A DNA stretch of 37,056 bases, from NCBI GenBank assembly GCA_019241305.1, contig JAFAXE010000128.1:1-37056 (forward strand), given 5' to 3'. Numbering within the stretch: position 1 is the first letter of the stretch; every line of letters starts with the position of its first letter. Position numbers and translations under genes: made by a program. This document shows positions 546-35,665 of the stretch, in pieces. Source of the DNA: Vulcanimicrobiota bacterium (GTDB lineage Bacteria; Vulcanimicrobiota; Vulcanimicrobiia; Vulcanimicrobiales; Vulcanimicrobiaceae). The notes beneath the pieces are model-generated. The model ran no database searches, was not told where the DNA came from, and saw only the letters and a list, made by a program, of their open reading frames with translations.

Positions 546-898
546 TGGTGGAGCTGCCGGGGAACCGCCCCCCGGGTCCGAAAAGCCGGACCAACGCTTT
601 CTCCAGGCTCAGTTTCGATTTTGTCTTAGACGCTCGTGCTTCTCGAAACCGGAATCACGTGCGCCGCAGTCTCAAAAGTTTCGGACGGTTCCCGAGACGA
701 TTTCCCCGTCCTAGCCGGACTTGTTGACGGATGGCGAGGCGGCTCCGGCGACTCCTCGCGTACCGTGACTAGCCTAGATTAGGCAGCCAGTGCGTAGTTG
801 GTGTTCGCGTGTATAACGCTTGCGATCGTTTTAGGAGGGCTCGCAACTCCGCCTGCTTACGCTGACCGCGGATCGATTCGTCGAACCTGCTCAGCCCC
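546..898 (-). ncRNA. ssrA: Transfer-messenger RNA (tmRNA), one-piece
   Basis: tmRNA with SmpB rescues ribosomes stalled on broken mRNAs and tags the nascent protein for proteolysis. On the minus strand the 5' end GGGGCTGAGCAGGTTCGACG carries the tmRNA-type D-region. It pairs with the 3' end CAGCTCC-ACCA in a 7-bp acceptor stem with a G-U wobble at the third pair, the alanine identity element. CCA is encoded. Upstream of the T arm is the familiar TTTTCGGAC. The tag reading frame (808-779) is GCG AAC ACC AAC TAC GCA CTG GCT GCC TAA, giving ANTNYALAA; its stop lies in a small hairpin (GCCTA/TAGGC), as in helix 5 of other tmRNAs. Total length 353 nt is typical. Odd: the T-arm loop reads about GGCGGTT instead of the usual TTCRANN. 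Confidence 0.93.
779..808 (-). other. tmRNA tag-peptide reading frame (ANTNYALAA)
   Basis: Ten codons including TAA inside the tmRNA. The encoded tag ends in ALAA, the degron that ClpXP-type proteases recognise on tmRNA-tagged proteins. The resume codon is taken as GCG at 808-806 by analogy with the usual alanine resume codon; the codon before it reads CAC. Confidence 0.85.
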
Positions 899-3290: not shown

Positions 3291-3971
3291 TCAGTCGGCG
3301 GCAACACTCCCGGACCCGCGCACCGACTGGTGAATGATGCGGGGCGAGCCCGTATAACGGATGTCTCCACTGCCAGAAACTTCAACATCGAGTGTGGCGG
3401 CGACGTTGAGCTTCGCGTCACCACTACCGCGCACGCGCACGACCGCGTCGCGCACAGCTAACCCTTGTAGGAACGCATCCCCCGAGCCCGAGCAGGAGTA
3501 CGTGAGCCGCTCGACGTTCCCCGAGGCTCGCACGTCGCCGGAACCATGGATCGCGATGTCGAGATTCGGGCCGCGCATCCCCACGAGCGTGATGTCGGAA
3601 CTGCCGCTCGTCCGGACGCTATCCAACTGCGGTATCGTGACGAAAAGGATGGGGCTCTTGGTACTCGTGTACGAGTGCTGGCTCGTCACCACGAGCGTTC
3701 CATCTTCCACCTTCGTCTCGATGAGATCGGCGATGTTCGGTTGGGCCTCAAGAACGACTGACTGCGGGTTTCCGATGGTTACGTGCACGTCGGTGCTGCC
3801 ATGAACCGAGATTGCTCGAAACGCCCCGAGGACGCGCTCCGAGCGAACGACCGCCCCGGTTCCAACGACGCGGCTGAACCAGAACGCGTTCGCGGACGAA
3901 GAACCGAGGACCACGATCCCCCAGCCGACGACGGCCAGCATGGCGACGAGGACCGAGGTGACGAACCGCAT
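3291..3971 (-). CDS. DUF2807 (GIN-domain) secreted protein, paralogue of the next gene
   Basis: 226 residues starting at ATG 3971, preceded by an excellent AAGGAGG 9 bases upstream. Residues 1-29 are a Sec signal peptide (hydrophobic core VLVAMLAVVGWGIVVLG, probable cleavage after SSANA). There is no lipobox cysteine, so unlike its downstream paralogue it is probably released or held otherwise. The mature part shows the same beta-helix pattern: VVGTGAVVRSERVLGAFRAI, then LDIAIHGSGDVRASGNV and VVRVRGSGDAKLNVAATLDV. Function unknown; DUF2807/DUF4097-type proteins often accompany envelope-stress membrane proteins. A YvlD-like gene lies 85 bases upstream on the same strand, consistent with an envelope-related group. 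A GTG one codon upstream of the ATG is an alternative start. Confidence 0.87.
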   Translation of the reverse strand: MRFVTSVLVAMLAVVGWGIVVLGSSSANAFWFSRVVGTGAVVRSERVLGAFRAISVHGSTDVHVTIGNPQSVVLEAQPNIADLIETKVEDGTLVVTSQHSYTSTKSPILFVTIPQLDSVRTSGSSDITLVGMRGPNLDIAIHGSGDVRASGNVERLTYSCSGSGDAFLQGLAVRDAVVRVRGSGDAKLNVAATLDVEVSGSGDIRYTGSPRIIHQSVRGSGSVAAD

Positions 3972-4031
3972 CACGACACTCCTCCTTCTCAAACCCAGGG
4001 CAGGTACGCCCCAGCCAGGAGCATGTTTCAT

Positions 4032-4061
4032 CGTAGCGGGCTGCTTGGCATATCCGCTACG
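4032..4061 (-). terminator. Hairpin at the end of the yvlD-like gene
   Basis: An 8-bp stem, CGTAGCGG at 4032-4039 with CCGCTACG at 4054-4061, overlaps the stop codon of the YvlD-like gene and lies before the DUF2807 genes. There is no T run, so this may be an attenuator or mRNA-stabilising hairpin rather than a full terminator. Confidence 0.4.
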
Positions 4062-4407
4062 CCGCTTCGGCTTCACGCACGAGGAACGACAGGAGCATCG
4101 AAACGATCGCGAGGATGATCGCGCCGATGAACGCCGGGCCGAAACCGTTCACCACGAGGCCGATGTGCCATGAGCCGACCCACCAAAACAACAGCGCGTT
4201 GATCACGAGCGTGAACAGTCCGAGCGTGACGATCTGAAGGGGAAGCGTGATGATGAAGAGCAGCGGCCGAAGGATGGCGTTGACGATGCCGAGCACGAGC
4301 GCCGCGATGACTGCGCCGCCGAACGAGGTGACGTGCACGCCGGGAACGATGTAGGCGACGACGAGAAGCGCCACCGCGTTGAGGATAAGCCTGATGAGAA
4401 AGTTCAC
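4057..4407 (-). CDS. Phage holin family 4 / YvlD-like membrane protein
   Basis: 116 residues, four predicted membrane helices (about 4-22, 28-48, 54-76, 90-112) with the family hallmarks GGAVIAALVLGIVNAILRPL and ITLPLQIVTLGLFTLVINAL. This is PF04020, called 'phage holin family 4' but in most bacteria an ordinary chromosomal membrane protein (YvlD in Bacillus subtilis, in an operon with an adhesin-like YvlB). The GTG start at 4407 overlaps the uvrC stop as GTGA, and GGGAGG lies about 8 bases upstream inside uvrC, so the two are translationally coupled. No phage gene is nearby, so I do not regard it as a prophage holin. The role is probably envelope-related, by analogy with the B. subtilis operon. 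Confidence 0.88.
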   Translation of the reverse strand: MNFLIRLILNAVALLVVAYIVPGVHVTSFGGAVIAALVLGIVNAILRPLLFIITLPLQIVTLGLFTLVINALLFWWVGSWHIGLVVNGFGPAFIGAIILAIVSMLLSFLVREAEAA

Positions 4408-6464
4408 GAAGGCGGTCCTCCCAAGAGTGTGTTTTTAATTGAAGCGGCAAGCGCCGGCGTCATTCCTTTTACGGCGGCAATTTCATCCACACTGGCTTTG
4501 CGTAGCGCGCTGAGCGAGCCGAAGGCATTCAAAAGACGCCGCTTGCGGACCGGTCCCACGCCGGCGAAGGCATCGAGAGCCGAGCGCGTCATCGCTTTAC
4601 CCCTCCGCTTGCGATGATACTCCACCGCGAAACGATGCGCTTCATCGCGGATCCGCATCACCAAATGTAACGCCGCGGAATTCGGAGGAAGCACGATCGG
4701 CTCGGACTGTCCCGGCACGTATAACCATTCATGCTCTTTGGCCAGTCCGGCGACGGGAATGCCCCAAAGGTCCATTTCTTCGAGCACCTCGGCGACCGCG
4801 TTCAACTGCCCTTTTCCGCCGTCGATGAGCAAGAGATCGGGACGGCGATGGAAGCGCTCTTTCCGCTGCACTGCGCGTTCGACCGAGCGTTCTTTGGCCG
4901 CCACCGAGGCGCTATCGGTCTCGCCCGGCGCGTTCGTATCCGCTCGCAGGTACCGCAAGCGCCGGCGCAGCGTCTCTTGCATCATCGCAAAGTCATTCGC
5001 GCCGCTGTCGTACCGGATGCGAAAGCGTCGATAATCGCTCTTCTTTGCGCGCCCTTCGACGAAGACGACCATCGAGGCAACCGGGTTCGTCCCTTGGATA
5101 TTCGAGATGTCGTAGCACTCGATGCGGTGCGGCGGCTCCGGCAAATCCAAGGCCGTCGCGAGTTCCGTCAAGGAGCGGGCTGATGCGGTTTCCTGCAGCT
5201 CCTGGTGCGCAAGGAATGCTTTGAGATTTTGCTCGGCATTCTCGTGTACGAGACGCATATAATCGGCGCGCACCCCGCGCTGGGCGCGCAGGACGCGTAC
5301 CCGTTGGCCTTTCAGCTCGCCCAGCCACGCCTCGATGACCGAGAGGTCGGTCGGCACCGTTTCGACGAGGACTTCTTTCGGAACGGTCGTTTGCGCGGGC
5401 GTTCGCCGAGCCCGAAAGAGACGCGCACGCTCCGTCACTGCGACCGGTACCTCGTTGGCCAGCGATTCACGAAGCGCGAGTGGCGAGAAACCGCTGCCGC
5501 CCGAAACCACCATCCCCGCACGTGCCGTATAAAACTGTTTGAGAAACTCCGAAAGGATTTCCGCCTCAGAGCGCTCGGAGACGCCTTCGACGATGAAGTG
5601 CTCTTGTGCGATGAGCTTTCCGCCGCGGACCAAAAAGACTTGAGCGCAGGCTTGACCTTGCGCGCTCGCCAGCGCGATGAGGTCCATGTCGACGCGGGTA
5701 CCCCAGACCATCTTCTGGCCTTCGGTCACTCGGCGTACCTGCACGATCCGATCGCGCAAGCGCGCTGCTGCTTCGTAGTTCATGCGGTTTGCCGCCTGGG
5801 CCATTTCTGCCTGGAGGCGCTCTAAGAGCCGGTCCTGCCGTCCTTCCAAGAACAGCACGACCTCGTCAACGAGTGCGTCGTACTCAGGTTCGCTCTGGTA
5901 ACCGACGCACGGCGCGAGGCAGCGTTTGATGTGATACTGCAGGCAGGGGCGATGCCGCTTACCGTCGATCGGTTCGCGACACGTCCGGAGCGGGAAAACG
6001 ATGCGGATCAGGTTGATAAGTTCGCGTAAGCCGTGCGCGTTCGTATACGGACCGAAATACCGCGCACCGTCGTCCTTGACGACACGCGTAAAAAGAACAC
6101 GCGAAAACGGCTCGTTCGTTACTTTGAGGTACGGATAGCGCTTGTCGTCGCGCAGCCTAACGTTAAACGGGGGCTGATGCCGTTTGATGAGATTCGACTC
6201 GAGGATCAGCGCCTCGACTTCGTTGTGAACGACGACCGTGCGAACGTCCACCACGCGCTCCACCAGGCGCTGCGTCCGTTCGGGATGCGCAGCGCTGTCC
6301 TGGAAGTAAGAACGCACGCGATTTCGCAGGGAGACCGCTTTGCCGATGTAGAGAATGCGGCCGTTCTCCCCAAGCATCGTGTAGACGCCGGGGGCATCCG
6401 GAATCTGGGCGAGCCGCTCCGCGAGCTTCAAATCCGAGCCGCGCAGCGCGCCGGTGACGGTCAC
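4404..6464 (-). CDS. uvrC: Excinuclease ABC subunit C
   Basis: 686 residues. UvrC makes the two incisions flanking DNA lesions once UvrB is loaded by UvrA. Domains in order: GIY-YIG nuclease (residues ~22-102; GVYTMLGENGRILYIGKAVS) for the 3' cut; a cysteine-rich patch (CREPIDGKRHRPCLQYHIKR); a UVR helical hairpin that binds UvrB (~205-240, NRMNYEAAARLRDRI); the RNase-H-like endonuclease domain (IECYDISNIQGTNPVASMVV, LLIDGGKGQL) for the 5' cut; and a tandem helix-hairpin-helix end (AFAGVGPVRKRRLLNAFG). Length is slightly above the usual ~610, mainly because of an Arg/Glu-rich stretch after DTNAPGETDS. Start GTG at 6464 lacks an obvious Shine-Dalgarno. It lies 51 bases after a DedA gene on the same strand, with a hairpin between. 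Confidence 0.97.
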   Translation of the reverse strand: MTVTGALRGSDLKLAERLAQIPDAPGVYTMLGENGRILYIGKAVSLRNRVRSYFQDSAAHPERTQRLVERVVDVRTVVVHNEVEALILESNLIKRHQPPFNVRLRDDKRYPYLKVTNEPFSRVLFTRVVKDDGARYFGPYTNAHGLRELINLIRIVFPLRTCREPIDGKRHRPCLQYHIKRCLAPCVGYQSEPEYDALVDEVVLFLEGRQDRLLERLQAEMAQAANRMNYEAAARLRDRIVQVRRVTEGQKMVWGTRVDMDLIALASAQGQACAQVFLVRGGKLIAQEHFIVEGVSERSEAEILSEFLKQFYTARAGMVVSGGSGFSPLALRESLANEVPVAVTERARLFRARRTPAQTTVPKEVLVETVPTDLSVIEAWLGELKGQRVRVLRAQRGVRADYMRLVHENAEQNLKAFLAHQELQETASARSLTELATALDLPEPPHRIECYDISNIQGTNPVASMVVFVEGRAKKSDYRRFRIRYDSGANDFAMMQETLRRRLRYLRADTNAPGETDSASVAAKERSVERAVQRKERFHRRPDLLLIDGGKGQLNAVAEVLEEMDLWGIPVAGLAKEHEWLYVPGQSEPIVLPPNSAALHLVMRIRDEAHRFAVEYHRKRRGKAMTRSALDAFAGVGPVRKRRLLNAFGSLSALRKASVDEIAAVKGMTPALAASIKNTLLGGPPS

Positions 6465-7133: not shown

Positions 7134-7520
7134 CTAGCGCGCGACGGCGGCCTGCGAAACGATATCGGCAGCGACGCTGCGGCCTTCGGCACAAATCGCA
7201 TCGAAAAGGTGTACGGGTTCCACGAGGCCTTGGCCGGAGGCTTCTTCCGCAAGGCGGACGATCTGCCGGACGCGGGGGGTCACGAGGATGCCGTCCCACA
7301 AACGCTCGTCGGGAGATCCAACGCGACGCCGAAGTTCCGCTTGCACCTGCGAAACCGCAATGCCGCTGTGCGAGAGTCGCGCTTCGATTGCCGAATCGTG
7401 TTGCTCCAAGAGGGCAAGCAAGAGATGCTCAACGCCCACGTAATAATGGTTGAGGTTGCGGCATTCTTGTTCAGCGACGCGCAAGACGTGCTTGGATGCC
7501 GGACTGAAGCGTGAAAACAA
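7134..7520 (-). CDS. Clp N-terminal-domain-only protein
   Basis: 128 residues consisting only of the double Clp repeat that forms the N-terminal substrate/adaptor-binding domain of ClpC/ClpA/ClpB. Repeat 1 is about residues 3-60 (FSRFSPASKHVLRVAEQECR, then HYYVGVEHLLLALLE) and repeat 2 about 80-125 (VTPRVRQIVRLAEEASGQGL, then EPVHLFDAI). No AAA+ ATPase module follows; the next gene is DedA. I chose the TTG at 7520 because it gives the family's usual MF-xRFs N-terminus. The longer upstream frame runs through the tRNA gene and is rejected. Such stand-alone Clp-N proteins may modulate Clp proteases or bind adaptors or arginine-phosphorylated proteins (inference). It follows tRNA-Pro by 37 bases. 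Confidence 0.82.
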   Translation of the reverse strand: MFSRFSPASKHVLRVAEQECRNLNHYYVGVEHLLLALLEQHDSAIEARLSHSGIAVSQVQAELRRRVGSPDERLWDGILVTPRVRQIVRLAEEASGQGLVEPVHLFDAICAEGRSVAADIVSQAAVAR

Positions 7521-7557
7521 CGATACCCCGCAGAGTGCGGCAAGAGAACGCTTGGGC

Positions 7558-7764: not shown

Positions 7765-8439
7765 ATGCATTATCTGATCGTTGGTTGCGGTAGAGTCGGT
7801 TCAACGCTCGCAAAGCTGCTGAGCGACGAAGGGCATGCCGTCACCGTGGTCGATGAAAATCCCGCGGCATTCAAGCGTCTCGGACACCACTTCTCCGGAC
7901 GCGTCGAGGTCGGGACCGGAATCGACTACGACGTTCTCCGGCGCGCAGGCGCTGCATCCGCGGACGGATTCGTCGCCGTGACCGAGGGAGACAACCGCAA
8001 CGTCATGGCGGCGCTGATCGCGCAGCGTATGTTTGGTATCAAAAAGATCGTGGCGCGGATTTACGACCCTCCTCGCGGCCTGTTATACCGGGAACTCGGA
8101 ATCGAAACGGTCTGTCCGACGACAGTAGGCGCCCGCCTCATCCGCGACAAGTTGATGTCGCTTCCTTTTGAATCGACGGGTTCGTTCGACTTCGGAAAGG
8201 TTTCTGCGCTCAGCGTTCACGTTGGGCCGCAGCTTGCGGGCAAGCGAATCCGCGACCTCGAGAGTGACGGACGGATCCGAGTCGTCGCTCTGCGCCGCGC
8301 TGCCGAAGTGCGAGTCGCTTCCCCGCACGAACCGTTGGAAGCCGACGATGAGCTGCACGCTGTCGTCGCGCCGGAAGCGCTTGCCGAGTTTGCCGAACGC
8401 ATCGTCGCCGGCGCGCCTACCGTCCGAATTTCCGCGTAG
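7765..8439 (+). CDS. TrkA-type (RCK) NAD-binding potassium-uptake regulator, first of a pair
   Basis: 224 residues. TrkA_N Rossmann domain (1-~125) begins MHYLIVGCGRVGSTLAKLLS, the GxGxxG nucleotide-binding turn, with an acidic ribose-binding residue at the end of strand 2 (VTVVDENPAAF). The second half (~140-220) is a TrkA_C domain (FDFGKVSALSVHVGPQLAGK). RCK proteins gate Trk/Ktr potassium transporters or K+ channels in response to nucleotides, or c-di-AMP in Ktr systems. ATG at 7765 was chosen because the Rossmann fold starts immediately; an upstream GTG at 7723 would add 14 residues. It ends 2 bases before a second TrkA gene, so the two are an operon and probably form hetero-oligomers. 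No TrkH/KtrB pore gene is adjacent. Confidence 0.88.
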   Translation: MHYLIVGCGRVGSTLAKLLSDEGHAVTVVDENPAAFKRLGHHFSGRVEVGTGIDYDVLRRAGAASADGFVAVTEGDNRNVMAALIAQRMFGIKKIVARIYDPPRGLLYRELGIETVCPTTVGARLIRDKLMSLPFESTGSFDFGKVSALSVHVGPQLAGKRIRDLESDGRIRVVALRRAAEVRVASPHEPLEADDELHAVVAPEALAEFAERIVAGAPTVRISA

Positions 8440-8441
8440 CC

Positions 8442-9125
8442 GTGTTTATTCTCATCGTCGGCGGCGGCAAGGTCGGTACGTATCTGGCGAGGGCCTTACT
8501 GGCACAAGACCACGAAGTGGTCGTCATCGAGAAGCAAGCGCGAAAAGCGCAGTATATGTCGAACATTCTCGACACCGACGTCGCGCTCGTTGGAGACGGT
8601 TGCGATCCAGAAGTCCTGCGCCAGGCCGGGATCGTTCGTGCCGACGTCGTGGTCGCGGACACCGGCGACGACGAAGACAACCTCGTCGTCTGCCTCATCG
8701 CGAAGAAACACTCGAAAGCACGGTGCATCGCCCGGGTCAACAATCCCAAAAACAAGATGATCTTCGAGTCGGTCGATACCGAACGGCCCATTACGCTGGT
8801 CTCGTCGACGGAAATTATCCTCGATCTCATCAACGAGTACGTCAATGCGCAGGACTACTCCATCATCACGCGCTTGCGCGACGGCGATTTGGAGCTGCTC
8901 AAGTTGACGGTTGGGCCGGAGTCACCCTCAAACGGCAAACGCATCGGCGATATCGGGCTGCCGCGCGGTAGCATCGTCGTCGCCGTCGACCGCCCGGGCG
9001 ACGAGCTCGTCATTCCGAGCGGCGACACCGTCCTCCATGCCGGCGATCAGGTCATCGTCATGGGAAAGCGAGATTACCGTATCGACGTGCGGCGCGCCAT
9101 CATGGGCCTGAAGGTTCCGGCCTAG
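8442..9125 (+). CDS. TrkA-type (RCK) NAD-binding potassium-uptake regulator, second of a pair
   Basis: 227 residues. Starts at GTG 8442, two bases after the preceding gene. TrkA_N Rossmann domain (1-~130) begins MFILIVGGGKVGTYLARALL with the GxGxxG turn and acidic residue VVVIEKQ; DVVVADTGDDEDNLVVCLIA is the strand-4 region. TrkA_C (~140-222) includes LPRGSIVVAVDRPGDELVIP and ends in LHAGDQVIVMGKR, typical of the RCK-C fold. Tandem TrkA genes like this usually serve one K+ transporter, whose pore subunit is not in this window unless the convergent membrane protein downstream acts in that role. The two proteins share architecture but are diverged, not a recent duplication. Confidence 0.9.
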   Translation: MFILIVGGGKVGTYLARALLAQDHEVVVIEKQARKAQYMSNILDTDVALVGDGCDPEVLRQAGIVRADVVVADTGDDEDNLVVCLIAKKHSKARCIARVNNPKNKMIFESVDTERPITLVSSTEIILDLINEYVNAQDYSIITRLRDGDLELLKLTVGPESPSNGKRIGDIGLPRGSIVVAVDRPGDELVIPSGDTVLHAGDQVIVMGKRDYRIDVRRAIMGLKVPA

Positions 9126-9190
9126 CTTCAGCGGCCGACGAAAGTGCCCGTCGACATGCTCGAACGAGACGACCGCCGCCGCCTTTGCGG

Positions 9191-9901
9191 TTAGGGCGTG
9201 AGGATGTTGATGGCGCGCGCCGCCACAAGCGTAATCGTCAAGAGCGACACGATCGATTCTACGAGCATCAGGCTCTTCGCCCACGCGGTCAGCGGCATCG
9301 TGTCGGTCGGGCTGAACGCCGTCGCGTTCGTGAACGCGACGTACAGATAGTCGACGAAGACCGGACTCCAACCAGCGGGCGCCGCGCCGGGCGTGACCAT
9401 CTGCGGGAAGAGGAAATCTGGTTGCGGATGCGTCGCGCGGCAGCGCGCCTCCGGACCGCCGCGGTCGAGTTCCCAATACCACAGCCCGAACACGATTACG
9501 TTGGTTACCCATATCGAGATCGCCGAATAGAGCAGCTCCGGACCGACGGTGTGCTTTCCGTGAAGAAGCCGCTGCACGAGTAACGCGAGCGACGTAAGGT
9601 TCGCAATGTTGACGATCGCGATGAGGCCGATCGCGACGGGACGGGTCAAGTGATCGAGACCCAGCCGGCGAGGCAAACCCAGCGTCAAGACGAGGAGCAC
9701 GATCACTTCGAGTGCCGGAAAGATCCAGCCCGGGCCCAGGGTGTACTTTCCGGGCAGCGTCAGGTAGAGCACTGCCGCAACGGCTATTGCTGCACTTGCT
9801 TGCAAGCGCGGCTCTTCGGGGGCAGGCGTGCCCCACGCGGCGCGTTTGCGTTCGGCGCGTTCCTTCGGACGTTCTTGCGGACCGGGCTCAGTCGTGGACA
9901 T
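9191..9901 (-). CDS. Membrane protein with a K+-channel-like pore segment lacking the canonical filter (DUF1345-like)
   Basis: 236 residues; ATG at 9901 shares one base with the stop codon of the radical SAM gene (TGATG). After a charged, Pro/Arg-rich N-terminus (1-30) there are about five hydrophobic helices. The C-terminal segment YLYVAFTNATAFSPTDTMPL followed by AWAKSLMLVESIVSLLTITL aligns by eye with the pore helix, filter and inner helix of two-TM K+ channels (consensus LYFSvtTlTTVGYGDi.P and the following G/A-rich helix), but SPTD stands where TVGYGD is expected. DUF1345 proteins share this pattern. Activity is unknown: it may be a non-selective or non-conducting relative of the channel fold. 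It lies convergent, 65 bases from the TrkA pair. Confidence 0.7.
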   Translation of the reverse strand: MSTTEPGPQERPKERAERKRAAWGTPAPEEPRLQASAAIAVAAVLYLTLPGKYTLGPGWIFPALEVIVLLVLTLGLPRRLGLDHLTRPVAIGLIAIVNIANLTSLALLVQRLLHGKHTVGPELLYSAISIWVTNVIVFGLWYWELDRGGPEARCRATHPQPDFLFPQMVTPGAAPAGWSPVFVDYLYVAFTNATAFSPTDTMPLTAWAKSLMLVESIVSLLTITLVAARAINILTP

Positions 9902-11112
9902 CAGTGCGTATGGGTGAAGTTTCCGAGGCGCACGCCGCATTCCCGGATGCGGCGAATCGCATCACGCATGCCGAGCGGTTCGCGTGGCCGTCCAACGGTG
10001 CGAAAGTACACTTCGGGATCGATGTTGAGGGTACGCGTCTGCACCATATCCACTGGCACGGAACGAAGAAAATCTTCCGTGGCGATCAGTTCGTCATGGT
10101 CGTCGCTGACGCCAGGATGTGTCAGCAGGTTCAGCGAGACGCGCAATCCCCGTTCCGAAGCCAAACGAATGCTTTCGAGCACGTCGGCCAAGCGATATCC
10201 CTGCGGCCGGTAGTACGCTGCATACACGTGCGCCCGGAAAGAGTTCAGGCTGATCCGTACCGCGTCCAGTCCAGCGTCGATCAGCCGGCGGAGCGCTTTG
10301 GGAGCGCTTCCATTCGTGTTGCAGTTGATCGTGCCATTCGTCCGTTCCGCGCGAATCCGTTCGATGGCTCGCACGATGGTCGTGGGCCGCAGCAGGGGCT
10401 CACCTTCGCAGCCTTGGCCGAACGAGACGATGCCGTCCGGCACGCGTTCGAGGTGATGCAGGGCGATGCGGGCGAGATCGGCAGCCTCCATTTCGACCGC
10501 GATACGAATTTGTGGCGATGGAATACCCGCCTCCACGCCGAGTTCGGAGATGCAACCAACGCACCGTGCATTGCAGCGTGGTGAAGCGGGAAGTGCGGCC
10601 TCACCGGCTTCGAGAAACACGTTTTGTGCCGTGAAGCATCCGTATTCCCGTGCGCACACGGCAAGTTGGGCTAGCACGCGGCTTTTGGGATCGCGTTCGA
10701 TCCGGCGCCGAATCGAGCGCTCCAGCACGCCGTTTTTAAAACGACGCGGTTTCCAATTTTCGTGGCGGTCGGTTCGCAGAGCGGCGACGTGCAACCGGCC
10801 CTCGAGCACACAAGCGAAGGTGTAGCCGAACAAGGGTAACGGCGGCGCCGTTGTGTCGGGGGCATATGCCGGAAGAAGCAGCCGGGTATATCCTGCCGGC
10901 AAGAGGGCGGCGAGGGCGGTTCTGCGTGACGCGACTCTTCCTCCAGAAAGAAGAGGCCGGCGCCCCGGTAACATCGTCGCCACGGTTCCGGGCGGCGCCG
11001 GCAGAAGTTCGTCGGCGCGCGCGCCACGAAGGGCACCGCCGTCAGCGAGCGGTTCAGCGGTCGAGTCGAAAAACACGCGCCCGCGCCGGTCGGCGTATGC
11101 GAGTCCCGTCAC
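9901..11112 (-). CDS. Uncharacterised radical SAM protein
   Basis: 403 residues from GTG 11112, which overlaps the dapF stop as GTGA with GAGG just upstream. The radical SAM core is shown by SPRCNARCVGCISE with the 4Fe-4S cysteines C180, C184 and C187 (CX3CX2C), then GIVSFGQGCEGEPLL (glycine-rich SAM-binding strand), TINCNTNGSAPKALRRLIDA and AVRISLNSFRAHVYAAYY. Residues 1-170 are an N-terminal extension of unknown fold that includes LFGYTFACVLEGRLHVAAL and a Cys-containing CAREYGCFTAQN. There is no second cysteine cluster of the SPASM type. The sequence resembles an orphan radical SAM family I associate with Firmicutes, with no assigned substrate. Coupling to dapF hints at cell-wall or amino-acid metabolism, but that is only positional inference. 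Confidence 0.85.
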   Translation of the reverse strand: MTGLAYADRRGRVFFDSTAEPLADGGALRGARADELLPAPPGTVATMLPGRRPLLSGGRVASRRTALAALLPAGYTRLLLPAYAPDTTAPPLPLFGYTFACVLEGRLHVAALRTDRHENWKPRRFKNGVLERSIRRRIERDPKSRVLAQLAVCAREYGCFTAQNVFLEAGEAALPASPRCNARCVGCISELGVEAGIPSPQIRIAVEMEAADLARIALHHLERVPDGIVSFGQGCEGEPLLRPTTIVRAIERIRAERTNGTINCNTNGSAPKALRRLIDAGLDAVRISLNSFRAHVYAAYYRPQGYRLADVLESIRLASERGLRVSLNLLTHPGVSDDHDELIATEDFLRSVPVDMVQTRTLNIDPEVYFRTVGRPREPLGMRDAIRRIRECGVRLGNFTHTH

Positions 11113-11909
11113 TCCACCTCGACGCTGCGTACGAATTCGGTTTCGGCCGGCCCGGAAAGGATCGCGTGGCCGTTCGTCTCCCAGACAACTTCCAGTTCGC
11201 CGCCCGGGACGATGACGCGTACGGGGTTCTTCACGCGCCCGTCGTCGAGGGCGAGGACGGCGGCGGCGACTGCGCCGGTACCACACGCTCGCGTGACTCC
11301 CACGCCGCGTTCATAGTGCCGCATCACGATGGAGTTACGGTCGTGGACCCGCGCTAGGTGCGCGTTGGTGCCGAGTGGGAACGCCGGATCGTGTGCGAGC
11401 GCAGCGCCGAGCGCTTCGAGGTCGACGCGCGCCGGATCGTCGACAAACATCACGACGTGCGGGTTGGGCATTGTAACGTGACCGTAGTGCCACGAATCCC
11501 CGCACGCCTCGAGCCGGACGCCGTCGCCGAGCCGATGGATCATCACCGGAACGCCGAGATCCGCCCGCACGACGATCTGGTGCTTTCTTTGTTGCAGTTC
11601 GACCGCGATACTCTCACCATTGCAATCGATGGCGAACCGTTCACCGGCGCCCTGTTCCCACAGATACCGCGCAACGCACCGGACGCCGTTCCCACAAGCC
11701 TCCGCCTCTGTGCCATCGGCGTTGAACACGCGCATCGTCGCGGCACCTCCGGCGGTCGGCGGGAGCACGACCAGGAGGCCGTCTGCGCCAATTCCTCCGG
11801 AACGATCGCACCAGCGCCGCGCAAACGCACCATATGCCGACAGGCGCGGACGACGCTCATCCAACACGAGGAACTCGTTCTTCGCCCCATTCATCTTGAG
11901 GATCGTCAC
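11109..11909 (-). CDS. dapF: Diaminopimelate epimerase
   Basis: 266 residues. Converts LL- to meso-diaminopimelate in lysine and peptidoglycan precursor synthesis, using two cysteines as acid/base without a cofactor. The two catalytic motifs are EACGNGVRC (C72) and TRACGTGA (C209), in the two pseudo-symmetric halves of the fold. The N-terminus KMNGAKNEFLVLD replaces the common KMhGxGNDF but keeps the overall pattern. Other conserved pieces are RSGGIGADGLLVV, NADGTEAE and NPHVVMFVDD. Start GTG at 11909 follows GGGGGG with a suitable gap. It lies 22 bases after hfq and is coupled to the downstream radical SAM gene. Confidence 0.96.
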   Translation of the reverse strand: MTILKMNGAKNEFLVLDERRPRLSAYGAFARRWCDRSGGIGADGLLVVLPPTAGGAATMRVFNADGTEAEACGNGVRCVARYLWEQGAGERFAIDCNGESIAVELQQRKHQIVVRADLGVPVMIHRLGDGVRLEACGDSWHYGHVTMPNPHVVMFVDDPARVDLEALGAALAHDPAFPLGTNAHLARVHDRNSIVMRHYERGVGVTRACGTGAVAAAVLALDDGRVKNPVRVIVPGGELEVVWETNGHAILSGPAETEFVRSVEVE

Positions 11910-27868: not shown

Positions 27869-27943
27869 GCACAGTGGTACCGCATCGACGCGTCGCTGGC
27901 CTTTGGCATAGAGTCCTCAACCGGGACGGGCTTCACGCGCTTC

Positions 27944-27963
27944 GCGGGGGAGGCTTCCCCCGC
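27944..27963. repeat. Strong GC hairpin upstream of an S53 protease gene
   Basis: GCGGGGG-AGGCTT-CCCCCGC, a perfect 7-bp GC stem with a 6-base loop at 27944-27963, lies about 45 bases before the start of the S53 protease gene. In the leader it could act as an mRNA-structure or attenuation element. Confidence 0.4.
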
Positions 27964-28005
27964 GGCACCGGTAAAGCGCGAACGTATCGGGCGAACCCCG
28001 AGAGA

Positions 28006-29640
28006 ATGGAGAACAGTCCTTTGAAAGTTCACTCTTTGTTAGGAGCGATGCTCCTCTTGAGTGCGGTCATCGTCGTCCCCCCACTTGCCGCACCTGCTCG
28101 CGCTGCCACGCTCGTGGACGGAGTCGTGCGCGCGGACGTGCGAGATCTCGGCAGAGCCGATGCGCGCATGCCGGTATCCTTTACCGTTGGCCTACGCTAC
28201 CGTCACGAAGCCGAACTGGAACGACTCGTCGAAGCGCAGACAAATCGCAATTCCCCCCTCTACCGACAGTTCTTGAGCAACGCACAATTCAACGATTACT
28301 TTGCACCGGCGACGGGCGACTATGCCCGCGTCGTTTTATCGTTGCGGCGGGCGGGGTTCGCGGTGGCGATCTCCGACAACCGGACGACCGTTCGGGCGAC
28401 GGGAACGACCGGAGCGGCGGAACGATACTTCACCGCGGAGATTCATCGGGTCGTACAAGCGGGTTACGGCATCCGTTATGGGAACGTGCGGACCGCGCTG
28501 ATTCCACGACAGATCGCCGACGTAGCCGATGTCGTGATTGGGCTCAACAATCTTCACGCGGCGACTCCCGACCATTTCTTCGTGCCGGCGTCTCGCGTGC
28601 GTCCTGATAAACTTCACGGCCCGCTGCTTGGCCCGAACGGCGGATACGGGCCGTTCGCGATTGCGCAGGCCTACGACTATCCCGTCCAACACGGTTTTGA
28701 CGGAAAAGGGCACGCCGTTGCGATCGCCATCGACTACGACTCGTCGGATAGCGACCTCGCGGCGTTCACGAAATTTTTCAACGTCAAGAGAACGGGGAAG
28801 ACGTTCCATGTCCCCGTCGATGGCGGCCAGCCGTACGACCCCAACGGCAGCGTGGAATCCACGCTCGACACCGAGACGGTGGGCAGCCTCGATCCCGGCG
28901 CTGACATGTACGTCTACAATTTTGGTGCAGCTTTCACGTTCCAAGAGATCAGCGACGCCTACAATAAGGCCGTCTCCGACAATAAGGTCGATGATGTGAG
29001 CTCGAGTTTCGGCCTGTGCGAGGACGACTCCCCACGAAGCTTCAACACCCTGGTCAACAAAATCACGAAGCAAGGTGCCGCCAAGGGCATCACGTTCAAC
29101 GCAAGCACCGGCGATTTTGGCCGCGGCGGGAAATGTTCTGATGGAACCGGACAAGACGTGCCGGCCGTGCTAACGTATTTCATTTCGGTGGGCGGTGCCG
29201 ACCCGAACATCGACAGCCACGGCAAGCTTGTCAGTGAAAACGAGGACTCGGGTTCCGGTGGCGGTCCTTCGGATATCTTCAAAATCCCCAGCTACCAGAA
29301 GGGCTTGCCCGGAATCTTCTCGACGACGAAGCGCAACATTCCCGACGTGTCGGGACCGTACTTGCCCGATGCGTTTTACATCAACGGGCAGTGGGGTCAA
29401 ATCGGCGGTACCTCGTGGGCATCGCCGGCGACGGCCGCCTTCATCGCTCAAGCGAACCAGGTTGACGGCAAGCGCCTCGGGTTTGCGAACCCGCACATCT
29501 ACGCCGCCTTCAAGGCGAACGGCTATAAGGACTTCAACGACGTGACGGTCGGTAACAACGGTATTGCATGCACGACGGGCTACGACGATTGCAGCGGTAT
29601 CGGGACGCTCAAAGGCTTCCCCCTCGCCGGCGCGCTCTAA
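28006..29640 (+). CDS. Secreted S53 (kumamolisin/sedolisin-type) serine-carboxyl protease
   Basis: 544 residues from ATG 28006; a TTG at 28021 with GGAG nine bases upstream is an equally good start and yields a clean Sec signal (MKVHSLLGAMLLLSAVIVVP, cleavage after ARA). Propeptide (~45-185): PVSFTVGLRYRHEAELERLV, SPLYRQFLSNAQFNDYFAP (pro-kumamolisin activation domain). Catalytic domain (~210-544): E284 and D288 in SVESTLDTETVG, D370 in FNASTGDFGRG (oxyanion hole), nucleophile S470 in GTSWASPATAA, and a Ca2+ site in the terminal GYDDCSGIGT. S53 enzymes are subtilisin-fold endopeptidases usually acting at acidic pH. It is followed by a strong bidirectional terminator. Confidence 0.93.
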   Translation: MENSPLKVHSLLGAMLLLSAVIVVPPLAAPARAATLVDGVVRADVRDLGRADARMPVSFTVGLRYRHEAELERLVEAQTNRNSPLYRQFLSNAQFNDYFAPATGDYARVVLSLRRAGFAVAISDNRTTVRATGTTGAAERYFTAEIHRVVQAGYGIRYGNVRTALIPRQIADVADVVIGLNNLHAATPDHFFVPASRVRPDKLHGPLLGPNGGYGPFAIAQAYDYPVQHGFDGKGHAVAIAIDYDSSDSDLAAFTKFFNVKRTGKTFHVPVDGGQPYDPNGSVESTLDTETVGSLDPGADMYVYNFGAAFTFQEISDAYNKAVSDNKVDDVSSSFGLCEDDSPRSFNTLVNKITKQGAAKGITFNASTGDFGRGGKCSDGTGQDVPAVLTYFISVGGADPNIDSHGKLVSENEDSGSGGGPSDIFKIPSYQKGLPGIFSTTKRNIPDVSGPYLPDAFYINGQWGQIGGTSWASPATAAFIAQANQVDGKRLGFANPHIYAAFKANGYKDFNDVTVGNNGIACTTGYDDCSGIGTLKGFPLAGAL

Positions 29641-33276: not shown

Positions 33277-35538
33277 CTACTCGATGCGCGAGAGGTAGAA
33301 CGCGTTCGCCGATCCTATACCGGTGACGTTGTCGTAACCAGGACCCGCTGTGAACGGTCCGTTCGAGCCGCTCGTCACGTCGTGGAATCCCCAGTCGCCG
33401 TTGTAATAGTACTGAGTAATCCAGGCGCCGTAGAGGGCGGGATGTACGTCTCCAGCGAGATCTTCTTCGCGGTGATTCACCTCGACTTGCACCGCGCAGA
33501 AGATTGGTGAGGAGACGGACGTACCCCAGGTGTACCACCATTGTCCGCCTGAGTACACGCTCACGGGCGTCTTGTCGCTTCCGTTGAAGGCGATGTCCGG
33601 CGTGTTTCGTCCCGTGCTCGACAGGAACCATTGCTGCCAGTAGGGCTCCGGGAAGTGTGGTGAGACACCACCGCCGCTGCCGGACCAACCGACTTCGTGC
33701 GAATAGCCGGCGTGCCCGTTGATATAGAGGCTCGTTGCGGCCACCGAAACGAAGTAAGGATCGCTCGACGGTACCTCGATTTCGCCGTTGCAGCCATTGC
33801 CGCCGCCATCCCCACTGGACGCACTAAACGTCATCCCATAGGCCGCGCCCTGCATCGCGATCTGGTTCGTTTGATCCCCAAACCAGTCGCTACACCCGGC
33901 GAAACTCGAGTTCACGAGTTCGGGGGAAGCGTTGGAGACCAGGTAGTTGTACGCGTCCAGGATGTGCGTGAAGCTCAGATCCGGGATCGTATAGATCGTG
34001 AGGTCGACGCCGGGCGCAAGCGACGCAATCATTTCCACGTCGAGATGCGGCTCCAGTTGGTCACCGCCAGGGGGACCATCGATGTTCACGTGATGGTAGA
34101 GCCAACTGTAGCGCGTGATTCCGAACTGACTCAGGTAGGTGTTGAGGTCCGCATCTGGGACGTCGCCGTCGATGACCACGCCCGCGGAGTGGCCCGTGCC
34201 ATCCCAACCGTGCTGTACCCCCATGTCGTAGGCAGACGCCAAGCCGTACGGGCTGAAGCCTGCGGGACCGTAGGGCGAACCCGTGAGAGCCTTGCCGCGC
34301 CCACCGGCATAGTCGTAGATCGAGACGTCATCGAGGAAGGCGTACCGGAGCGCATTCGCGCCCGTTCCGGTCACGCCGAGATAGATCCAAATGGGATGTC
34401 CAGCGAAGAAGCTCATGTCCACGGCGAAGTTCTGCCATCCTAGCGGCGCTTGGCCCGTCTTCGTGGATTGTTGATACGGGAACTGATAGAACTTGCCGCG
34501 GGTGTAGTCGTATACGTAAGCCACCGTGAATTTCGCGGGGTCACTATTGACGAGGTAGGCCCACCACGTCATTTCGGCCAGGTTCGGCGTCGCACTGAAG
34601 TACTGGCAGACCATCGAATAGCCGTTGACTTCCTGTGAGCCGGCGCCCGCAAGGACCGAATACGAGCCGGTGTGCGCGTACGTGCTGATGCTGACGGGAT
34701 CCGTTCCGCCACAATCAACCCACGGTCCCGAGAGCGAACCCGATTCGAAGCCGGGGTCTTGCACGTAGTTCGACCCGAACGGAAACCCGTAGTTTGGGTT
34801 GACGCGCTGCGCGCGCGTTTTCGGGCGAGGCAGAAGATGCGCGCGGAGGTGCGCTTCCGTCCTGGCGTCGACCGGTTGCGGCGGAATTGCGTGCGGCCGT
34901 GCGGTGCCGCCGCCGTCGCGGCGAAGGAGCGGCGGTGGCGCCACGCGGGCGTGCGAGGTCGCGTGCACCTCAATCACGTTGCTCAAACCCGCGACGCTTC
35001 GAACGACGCCCTGCAGGCTTGCCGGCATGAGTGCCGCGCGCACGTTCATGTAGCGGATGCCGTAGTGGCTCTGCGCGACGGTGTGGATCGTCGTGTTGAA
35101 GAACCGCTCAACGACCGCAACCGGTGCGGCGGCGTCGATGATCGTGCGGTTCGCGAACGTCTTGGTGATCGTGAAGCCGGCGGCGCGCAGGGTCGCGATC
35201 ACCTTGGCGTGGTCCTGCGCGGCCGGCGCAAAGGTCGCGATGAATTGTTGCCGCGTGATCCAGCGATGGTACAGCGGCGAGTGACGATCCGATTGAGCCC
35301 TGACGAGGGCCTCGAGTTTCGCCTGCTGCCGGTACTCCAGCACAAACGCGAGATTCGCGCGCGTGGTGGGTGCAACGCGACCAAGATCGCGGACGTCGCG
35401 CGCGTTGGGAAGACCAGCGGCCAGGTTGCTCGGAAGGGGCATTGCCGATGCCGGAGTTGCGCTGAGCGCGGCACAGAGCAGGCCGGCGGTGAGGAGCCCG
35501 GCGGCACCGATTCGGCCGGCGGGCGCGTACGTCATCAT
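33277..35538 (-). CDS. Secreted S53 protease with an inserted lectin-like module
   Basis: 753 residues. Sec signal (~1-32, cleavage after TPASA). Propeptide (~35-200; PLYHRWITRQQFIATFAPAA). A region of ~150 residues (about 258-410) not found in ordinary kumamolisins, opening DPGFESGSLSGPWVDCGGTD and closing RYAFLDDVSIYDYAGGRG, looks like a beta-jelly-roll carbohydrate-binding or lectin module. The catalytic domain (~415-753) has E496 and D500 (LEPHLDVEMI), D577 (FSASSGDGGG), S674 (GTSVSSPIF) and Ca2+ site GPGYDNVTGIGS. All catalytic residues are present. ATG 35538 has GGAGA about seven bases upstream; the next codon is also ATG. It is a paralogue of the S53 protease at 28006, but much longer. 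Confidence 0.9.
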   Translation of the reverse strand: MMTYAPAGRIGAAGLLTAGLLCAALSATPASAMPLPSNLAAGLPNARDVRDLGRVAPTTRANLAFVLEYRQQAKLEALVRAQSDRHSPLYHRWITRQQFIATFAPAAQDHAKVIATLRAAGFTITKTFANRTIIDAAAPVAVVERFFNTTIHTVAQSHYGIRYMNVRAALMPASLQGVVRSVAGLSNVIEVHATSHARVAPPPLLRRDGGGTARPHAIPPQPVDARTEAHLRAHLLPRPKTRAQRVNPNYGFPFGSNYVQDPGFESGSLSGPWVDCGGTDPVSISTYAHTGSYSVLAGAGSQEVNGYSMVCQYFSATPNLAEMTWWAYLVNSDPAKFTVAYVYDYTRGKFYQFPYQQSTKTGQAPLGWQNFAVDMSFFAGHPIWIYLGVTGTGANALRYAFLDDVSIYDYAGGRGKALTGSPYGPAGFSPYGLASAYDMGVQHGWDGTGHSAGVVIDGDVPDADLNTYLSQFGITRYSWLYHHVNIDGPPGGDQLEPHLDVEMIASLAPGVDLTIYTIPDLSFTHILDAYNYLVSNASPELVNSSFAGCSDWFGDQTNQIAMQGAAYGMTFSASSGDGGGNGCNGEIEVPSSDPYFVSVAATSLYINGHAGYSHEVGWSGSGGGVSPHFPEPYWQQWFLSSTGRNTPDIAFNGSDKTPVSVYSGGQWWYTWGTSVSSPIFCAVQVEVNHREEDLAGDVHPALYGAWITQYYYNGDWGFHDVTSGSNGPFTAGPGYDNVTGIGSANAFYLSRIE

Positions 35539-35569
35539 GGGAGCGTCTCCATTTTGTGGTTGTGAGATG

Positions 35570-35602
35570 GAGCGCCGCCGACAGGAACCTGAGGCGGCGC
35601 TC
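35570..35602. repeat. Inverted repeat in the S53 gene leader
   Basis: GAGCGCCGCC (35570-35579) and GGCGGCGCTC (35593-35602) form a perfect 10-bp GC stem with a 13-base loop in the 127-base gap upstream of the S53 gene. The minus strand after it is not T-rich, so it is more likely a leader hairpin than a terminator of the upstream regulator gene. Confidence 0.45.
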
Positions 35603-35665
35603 GATGCCGGCATCGTAGGGTGAGGCCGTCCCACAAGCGTCCCGCGGCGAGGAACGATCCGGGTC

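What the first reader, a model, noticed from the sequence alone, without database searches (positions are those of the whole stretch)
7765..9901. RCK (TrkA) pair facing a channel-like protein without the K+ filter
Two tandem TrkA genes have no TrkH/KtrB nearby. The convergent membrane protein has a pore-helix/filter/inner-helix pattern, with SPTD where TVGYGD would sit. It may be a divergent pore subunit, a sensor that lost conduction, or an unrelated DUF1345 protein.
Basis: inference. Interest (0 to 1): 0.6.

Follow-up and report, generated by a model that had tools for sequence, protein, structure and literature searches.

The report
Orphan potassium sensors beside unusual channel relative
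A soil-bacterium genome carries a pair of potassium-transport control proteins whose usual pump is missing, and next to them, probably only by neighbourhood, a member of a widespread unstudied protein family that folds like a potassium channel but has a different, strictly conserved filter.

Summary
Tandem RCK genes (7765-8439, 8442-9125, +) face a convergent membrane gene, MEM (9191-9901, -). The held genome has no TrkH/KtrB. The loop is conserved, not decaying: AFSPTD-like in MEM, its 75 aligned relatives and all 20 fetched divergent members, never GYG. MEM is a DUF1345-like relative of P-loop channels, spread over several phyla.

The proposed RCK-MEM unit is not supported. The pair is near-universal in the class (108 of 116 genomes), MEM lies within 3 kb of it in only 5, and a single-contig genome keeps the pair without MEM. 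MEM starts inside the stop codon of a radical-SAM gene, so it looks co-transcribed with that. The pair is an orphan: no TrkH and no KimA in any of 116 class genomes. Its relatives elsewhere sit beside the K+ importer KimA (11 of 20 loci read). I infer that it now regulates another permease in trans, an APC+Usp transporter or Kup.

The parts
7765..8439 (+). trkA1-like gene: RCK protein 224 aa, TrkA_N + TrkA_C, GxGxxG motif
8442..9125 (+). trkA2-like gene: RCK protein 227 aa, TrkA_N + TrkA_C, GTG start 2 bases after the trkA1 stop
9191..9901 (-). MEM: 236-aa membrane protein of a DUF1345-like, P-loop-channel-fold family; convergent with the pair
9194..9589 (-). MEM residues 105-236: the pore module (outer helix, pore helix, filter-like loop, inner helix)
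9323..9358 (-). MEM residues 182-193: pore-helix-like helix
9293..9331 (-). MEM residues 191-203, TNATAFSPTDTMP: filter-like loop; A195, F196, P198, D200 and P203 invariant in 76 aligned homologues; AFSPTD aligns with TVGYGD
9901..11286 (-). radical-SAM protein gene (open frame; true start probably lower, since it overlaps dapF); its TGA (9903-9901) overlaps the MEM ATG (9901-9899) by one base, TGATG
7137..7556 (-). Clp_N-domain gene: usual divergent neighbour of the RCK pair in the class

Best explanation
Two unrelated things meet here. (1) The tandem genes encode the two halves of a hetero-oligomeric RCK regulator of the CeoB/CeoC kind. It is related to pairs that in other phyla sit divergent from the APC-type K+ importer KimA; in this class neither KimA nor TrkH was found, and the pair stayed, in a uvrC-dedA-clpN-trkA1-trkA2 block. 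I infer that it still senses nucleotide (and perhaps K+ or c-di-AMP) and switches a permease encoded elsewhere. The best candidates are the APC permease with its UspA-like partner on contig 42 and the Kup on contig 185. (2) MEM is a member of a widespread uncharacterised family, related to DUF1345, that has the pore module of P-loop cation channels with a conserved non-canonical filter (AFSPTD/E). I infer a tetrameric membrane pore or pore-derived sensor that is not K+-selective and works independently of the RCK pair. Shown: gene content, synteny, absences in the genomes held, fold prediction, loop conservation. Inferred: every step of transport, gating or sensing.
For: RCK pair: TrkA2 match in 108 of 116 class genomes (131 of 148 in the sample). 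TrkH in 0 of 116 (16 of 148, all in other classes). KimA in 0 of 116 (7 of 148). Outside the phylum, 11 of 20 fetched pair loci have a KimA-like permease directly divergent from trkA1 and 3 of 20 an APC-Usp fusion directly upstream on the same strand; one such permease matches the solved KimA at E 7.8e-115. On a tree of concatenated pairs the 41 class pairs form a clade of 54 (support 0.999) with 11 KimA-linked pairs, L291 and L169. APC permease orthologue in 98 of 116 class genomes; it lies beside Kup in all 7 loci fetched because the coordinates were close and beside a second RCK pair in G032 and G125. MEM: the pore module gives only K+ channels in Foldseek's best 50 (prob 0.87-1.00) and Z 10.2-11.5 against Kir, KirBac, NaK and plant K+ channels; hhalign of divergent members with K+ channels E 1.4e-5, probability 79.8; 75 of 76 members match DUF1345 and 25 of 76 Ion_trans_2 at E 0.1; two members exceed the Ion_trans_2 cut-off. 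MEM independence: no neighbour family in more than 8 of 80 loci.
Against: No Foldseek match reaches E 0.001 (best 0.027), and with the full-length model the top VIA row was an unrelated helical protein (Z 9.1). Z around 11 is still within what helical bundles can give by chance arrangement (note). The contig-42 APC permease resembles cationic amino-acid transporters, not KimA, in the PDB, so it may not move K+. Genus g2 genomes (G028, G078, G096, G102, G134, G137) keep the pair without that permease, and nine class genomes lack both it and Kup. The Solirubrobacterales pairs beside the APC-Usp fusion are not the closest relatives of the class pair on the tree. KdpA was not searched. G000 is 91.5% complete.
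Confidence: 0.55

Rival explanations
1. The RCK pair gates MEM: MEM is a divergent pore subunit that replaced TrkH in this lineage, and the convergent placement reflects a functional unit.
For: MEM has the predicted channel pore fold. In five class genomes, G000, G117, G079, G123 and G132, MEM lies within 3 kb of the pair, and in G131, G113 and G036 within about 12 kb. 26 of 30 MEM genomes outside the phylum also carry a pair homologue.
Against: MEM is convergent, not in the RCK operon, and overlaps a radical-SAM stop codon. Pair beside MEM in 4 of the 80 best MEM loci. The pair is kept without MEM, for example in the one-contig genome G008. MEM without pair in 4 of 30 genomes outside the phylum. 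In 8 of 39 class loci the radical-SAM gene directly abuts trkA2 with no MEM between.
Confidence: 0.07
2. MEM has the channel fold but no longer conducts: the conserved AFSPTD loop is a ligand or metal site, or a structural element, of a membrane sensor or enzyme subunit.
For: No GYG in any of the members examined. Strong conservation outside the filter too: WELDRGGP and PDFLFPQM. No conserved transporter neighbour.
Against: The pore helix, loop and inner helix are all kept and the loop mostly keeps the acid that follows the K+ filter. P-loop channels with non-GYG filters that conduct are known (NaK, CNG; recalled).
Confidence: 0.35
3. The RCK pair is a true Trk system whose TrkH lies in the missing 8.5% of the assembly.
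For: G000 is 91.47% complete in 227 contigs.
Against: TrkH is missing from all 116 class genomes searched, among them many over 95% complete and the single-contig G008, while 16 genomes of other classes in the same search ring.
Confidence: 0.02
4. The pair's partner is specifically the APC permease plus UspA-like protein of contig 42, functioning as a K+ importer that replaced KimA.
For: Homologous APC-Usp fusion directly upstream of a tandem RCK pair in 3 of 20 loci outside the phylum; best match among ten G000 transporters 128-146 bits against 54 or less for the next. Same permease divergent from a second RCK pair in G032 and G125. Beside Kup in 7 loci. Extra Kup copies where it is missing: 8 of 18 against 4 of 98 genomes (Fisher p 2.4e-5; without genus g2 p 0.06).
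Against: Nearest solved structures are cationic amino-acid transporters. Pair kept in genomes without it. Tree placement.
Confidence: 0.3

Closest known systems
CeoB/CeoC of Mycobacterium tuberculosis with the adjacent Rv2690c
   Same: Two TrkA genes named together as the Trk system; a published transposon screen groups ceoB and the adjacent Rv2690c by phenotype (PMC12216072, abstract and two passages seen); deletion of ceoBC affects K+ homeostasis (PMC6375644, passages seen). A Williamsia locus (same order as Mycobacterium, recalled) has the pair divergent from KimA.
   Different: No KimA-like permease next to the pair or found in the genome here.
TrkA/KtrA with TrkH/KtrB
   Same: RCK_N + RCK_C domains.
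   Different: No TrkH/KtrB in the held genome or in 116 class genomes; each gene carries one RCK unit.
KimA (solved structures 6s3k, 8b70, 8b71)
   Same: Its homologues are direct neighbours of related RCK pairs.
   Different: Not found here; the contig-42 APC permease is not KimA-like.
DUF1345 (PF07077)
   Same: MEM matches residues 94-225 to profile 47-169, E 3.4e-5; 75 of 76 members match.
   Different: MEM is under the curated cut-off; conserved AFSPTDTMP, WELDRGGP and PDFLFPQM blocks mark its group.
Ion_trans_2 / Kir / KcsA two-TM K+ channel pore module
   Same: Outer helix, pore helix, re-entrant loop and inner helix; Z about 10-11.5. A TVGYGD channel of the same class, L294, matches both Ion_trans_2 and weakly DUF1345 and aligns with MEM.
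   Different: AFSPTD in place of TVGYGD; extra N-terminal helices; a conserved loop between outer helix and pore helix.

Membership tests
Trk/Ktr K+ uptake system | RCK regulatory subunit(s) with TrkA_N and TrkA_C | tested here: met
Trk/Ktr K+ uptake system | TrkH/KtrB membrane subunit | tested here: not met
   0 in G000, 0 of 116 class genomes; G000 is 91.5% complete
CeoBC-KimA arrangement | Tandem single-RCK pair related to KimA-linked pairs | tested here: met
   clade of 54 with support 0.999, midpoint root, FastTree
CeoBC-KimA arrangement | KimA-like permease adjacent or in the genome | tested here: not met
   none in G000 at E 1e-60; only six of eight first-look candidates were scored
P-loop K+ channel (Ion_trans_2) | Two-TM pore-module fold | tested here: met
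   (prediction, not a solved structure; no Foldseek E under 0.001)
P-loop K+ channel (Ion_trans_2) | TVGYGD-type K+ filter | tested here: not met
   AFSPTD-like in A1 (76 members) and in 20 divergent members
P-loop K+ channel (Ion_trans_2) | Pfam match over the curated cut-off | tested here: not met
   MEM itself has none; family members in G059 and G055 do
P-loop K+ channel (Ion_trans_2) | Ion conduction by a tetramer | not testable with these tools
   needs expression or purified protein
DUF1345 (PF07077) | Pfam match over the curated cut-off | tested here: not met
   24.0 bits against 31.8, E 3.4e-5

The most novel reading that the evidence does not exclude
MEM and its relatives are a real, conducting P-loop channel family with a selectivity filter of a new class (AFSPTD/E in place of TVGYGD), spread over Actinomycetota, Chloroflexota, Eremiobacterota, Deinococcota and rhizobia and so far unnamed. 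As a side branch, the orphan RCK pair of this class controls an APC-type permease in trans after loss of both TrkH and KimA.
Probability: 0.3. Interest if true: 0.75.

Novelty: new variant of a known kind. Interest (0 to 1): 0.5.

Why it matters
A strictly conserved non-GYG loop in a K+-channel pore fold, found across several phyla, would be a natural test of what a selectivity filter can become. A relative with a normal TVGYGD filter (L294) makes the change testable by ordinary channel biophysics. The orphan RCK pair is a case of a gating subunit kept through a whole class after its known pores were lost, and could show which permease families RCK proteins can regulate; the membrane partner of such tandem pairs is not named in the passages of the CeoBC papers that I searched.

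Tried and rejected
MEM as RCK partner: rejected as the main reading because adjacency is clade-limited and co-occurrence loose.

Contig-42 APC permease as a KimA: rejected; KimA does not appear even at E 10 in the PDB search. It stays a rival as a non-KimA partner. I first favoured it strongly; the tree and the genus g2 genomes weakened this.

c-di-AMP riboswitch in front of the pair, the APC permease, Kup or four further permease/pair loci: none at the gathering score in 9 sources.

MEM in phages: no match. MEM profile against PDB sequences: no match at E 1. NCBIfam for KimA-like proteins: no match at E 1e-10. Literature: DUF1345 occurs in 2 papers, neither opened (listing); orphan + TrkA + TrkH + RCK in none; Eremiobacter + potassium gave 23 papers, 10 listed, none on transport by title (listing); TrkA + RCK + Kup + KimA gave 6 (listing); KimA, TrkA, Mycobacterium, Rv2690c (three of four) gave 17, 10 listed (listing).

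In the fold look-up, the rank-1 VIA row of the full-length model was an unrelated enzyme; it is not among the 50 rows shown for the pore module alone. Rows dropped: 5 of 80 MEM relatives left out of A1 because of stops or unread letters; 5 of 76 loci without a clean pair left out of the tree; L294 left out of the automatic K+-channel list by a stop in its flank and added with corrected ends. KdpA was not searched: all 12 genome-search runs were used.

Full report
What is there. Two RCK genes lie in tandem at 7765-8439 and 8442-9125 (+), each with TrkA_N and TrkA_C over the Pfam cut-offs, 2 bases apart, each with GxGxxG. A convergent gene, here called MEM, runs from 9901 to 9191 (-). Its ATG overlaps by one base the TGA of a radical-SAM gene (TGATG at 9903-9899), so it is probably translated with that gene and not with the RCK pair. 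The genome is, by its relatives, a Candidatus Eremiobacterota MAG: same-family genomes G117 and G131 have contigs of the same length (36,686 and 38,758 bases) as named Eremiobacterota contigs (inference).

No Trk pore. TrkH/KtrB (PF02386) has no match in G000 and none in the 116 genomes of its class in the 148-genome phylum sample; all 16 positive genomes belong to other classes. The class count of 116 (families f1 98, f2 4, f3 14) is mine, made from the listing, and all class counts below rest on it.

The RCK pair is a class-wide fixture. TrkA2 matches in 131 of 148 genomes, 108 of them among the 116 of the class (two of the 108, G094 and G104, only weakly). Of 40 class loci read (L125-L164), all have both genes side by side, and 39 have the Clp_N gene on the trkA1 side, in most within 1 kb. 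After trkA2 comes either the radical-SAM gene directly (gap 20 to 154 bases in 8 of 39 loci) or assorted other genes; MEM is in that slot in 1 of the 39.

MEM travels on its own. It is in 88 of 148 genomes, all of the class. It lies within 3 kb of trkA2 in 5 of these (G000, G117, G079, G123, G132) and within about 12 kb in 3 more (G131, G113, G036), by the coordinates. Among the 80 best relatives in genome contigs, RCK genes were found in the flanks of 4, and no neighbour family occurs in more than 8 of 80 (flanks are at most 5 kb and often shorter). 26 of 30 MEM genomes outside the phylum have a pair homologue; none of these 30 loci has RCK genes in the flank read. The single-contig genome G008 has the pair and no MEM.

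MEM's fold. AlphaFold2 with 76 sequences: pLDDT 89.4, pTM 0.85; helices 33-47, 60-74, 83-114, 120-148, 182-193 and 206-234. Residues 105-236 predicted alone: pLDDT 78.8, pTM 0.71. For this module the 50 best Foldseek rows are all K+ channels, probabilities 0.87-1.00, but E 0.027 at best; VIA-align gives Z 10.2-11.5 over 92 to 122 residues for 50 rows that are K+ channels or the NaK channel, save 9ma5, titled only 'a transmembrane protein'. The full-length model gave the same families with Z 7.8-9.0 but an unrelated enzyme at rank 1 (Z 9.1). The sequence agrees: hhalign of 76 close homologues with 30 K+-channel pores of the class gives E 0.0009 but probability only 22.8; 21 members (MEM and 20 divergent ones) give E 1.4e-5, probability 79.8. 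Both alignments put AFSPTD on TVGYGD. 25 of 76 close and 5 of 21 divergent members match Ion_trans_2 at E 0.1 or better. A same-class channel with TVGYGD, L294, matches Ion_trans_2 at 52.3 bits and DUF1345 at 18.2 bits.

MEM's filter. In 76 aligned homologues A195, F196, P198, D200 and P203 are invariant. In 20 divergent members the loop reads mostly xFSPTD or xFGPTE (a few vary further, such as SFTAAE), with the acid kept and GYG never present. Such conservation argues against decay. It also argues against K+ selectivity of the usual kind. What the pore passes, if anything, is unknown.

What the RCK pair serves. Outside the phylum I read 20 pair loci (of the 26 genomes with matches). A KimA-like permease lies directly divergent from trkA1 in 11; an APC permease fused to a Usp domain lies directly upstream on the same strand in 3; two have only a Usp-like gene and four none of these. 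The KimA profile used was built from ten of these same loci, so the independent evidence is the PDB match: KimA at E 7.8e-115 for one and 4.3e-178 for the alignment. On the tree the class pairs form a clade with the KimA-linked pairs (support 0.999, FastTree, midpoint root). KimA is in 7 of 148 genomes of the phylum and 0 of 116 of the class (at most six first-look candidates were scored per genome). So the pair looks like a KimA or CeoBC-type regulator that outlived its neighbour.

Candidate new partners. The APC permease of contig 42 (P0002), followed by the UspA-like P0004, has orthologues in 98 of 116 class genomes. It is the G000 permease closest to the APC-Usp fusions that sit beside RCK pairs (128-146 bits; next 54 or less). 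It lies beside Kup in 7 loci chosen because the coordinates were close, and divergent from a second RCK pair in G032 and G125. Genomes without it more often have two or more Kup genes: 8 of 18 against 4 of 98 (p 2.4e-5), but p 0.06 when genus g2 is left out, so relatedness explains much of it (one split Kup in G085 was counted as one). Against it: nearest solved structures are cationic amino-acid transporters; pairs persist without it; the tree does not place its RCK neighbours nearest. Kup is in 55 of 116 class genomes. Nine class genomes show neither; Kdp was not tested.

Known ground. In the passages searched, PMC6375644 and PMC13163235 treat CeoBC as the Trk system of M. tuberculosis, and the word TrkH occurs in neither of them nor in PMC12136442. 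PMC12216072 (abstract and two passages) reports that ceoB and adjacent Rv2690c mutants share a phenotype. That Rv2690c is KimA-like is recall, supported here only by the Williamsia locus L290. For DUF1345 or MEM as a channel I found nothing in print in the searches; neither of the two papers that hold the word DUF1345 was opened. Two annotated plasmid relatives of MEM are called hypothetical protein.

Verdict. The proposed RCK-MEM unit is probably a coincidence of place in a small clade. Two modest leads remain: a conserved non-canonical P-loop family, and an orphan RCK pair kept through a class.

Noticed in passing
L001:1195-2199 (G000 contig 13) and L299, L300, L302: A two-TM channel fused to RCK domains whose filter reads TTGGGE (TIGGGE and TVGGGE in relatives) instead of TVGYGD; possibly not K+-selective.
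   Followed up: no
L294:1492-2325 (G086): A 278-aa channel frame with a normal TVGYGD filter that matches Ion_trans_2 and weakly DUF1345 and aligns with MEM; a natural bridge between the two families.
   Followed up: partly
L272:400-3645, L276, L278 (Solirubrobacterales by record titles of the same genomes): Operon-like APC permease with fused Usp domain followed directly by two tandem RCK genes.
   Followed up: partly
L222-L228: APC permease + Usp gene convergent with Kup in several genomes of the class (genus g7 and G116), suggesting a K+-related cluster.
   Followed up: partly
window 546-898 (-): tmRNA gene found by Rfam (111 bits) but not listed by ARAGORN.
   Followed up: no
window 27874-29640 (+) and 33277-35634 (-): Two long ORFs that look like secreted sedolisin-type (S53) proteases, by eye only.
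   Followed up: no
L372 (Mesorhizobium plasmid) 3950-4459: A short MEM relative (about 169 aa) that covers little more than the pore module, annotated hypothetical protein.
   Followed up: no
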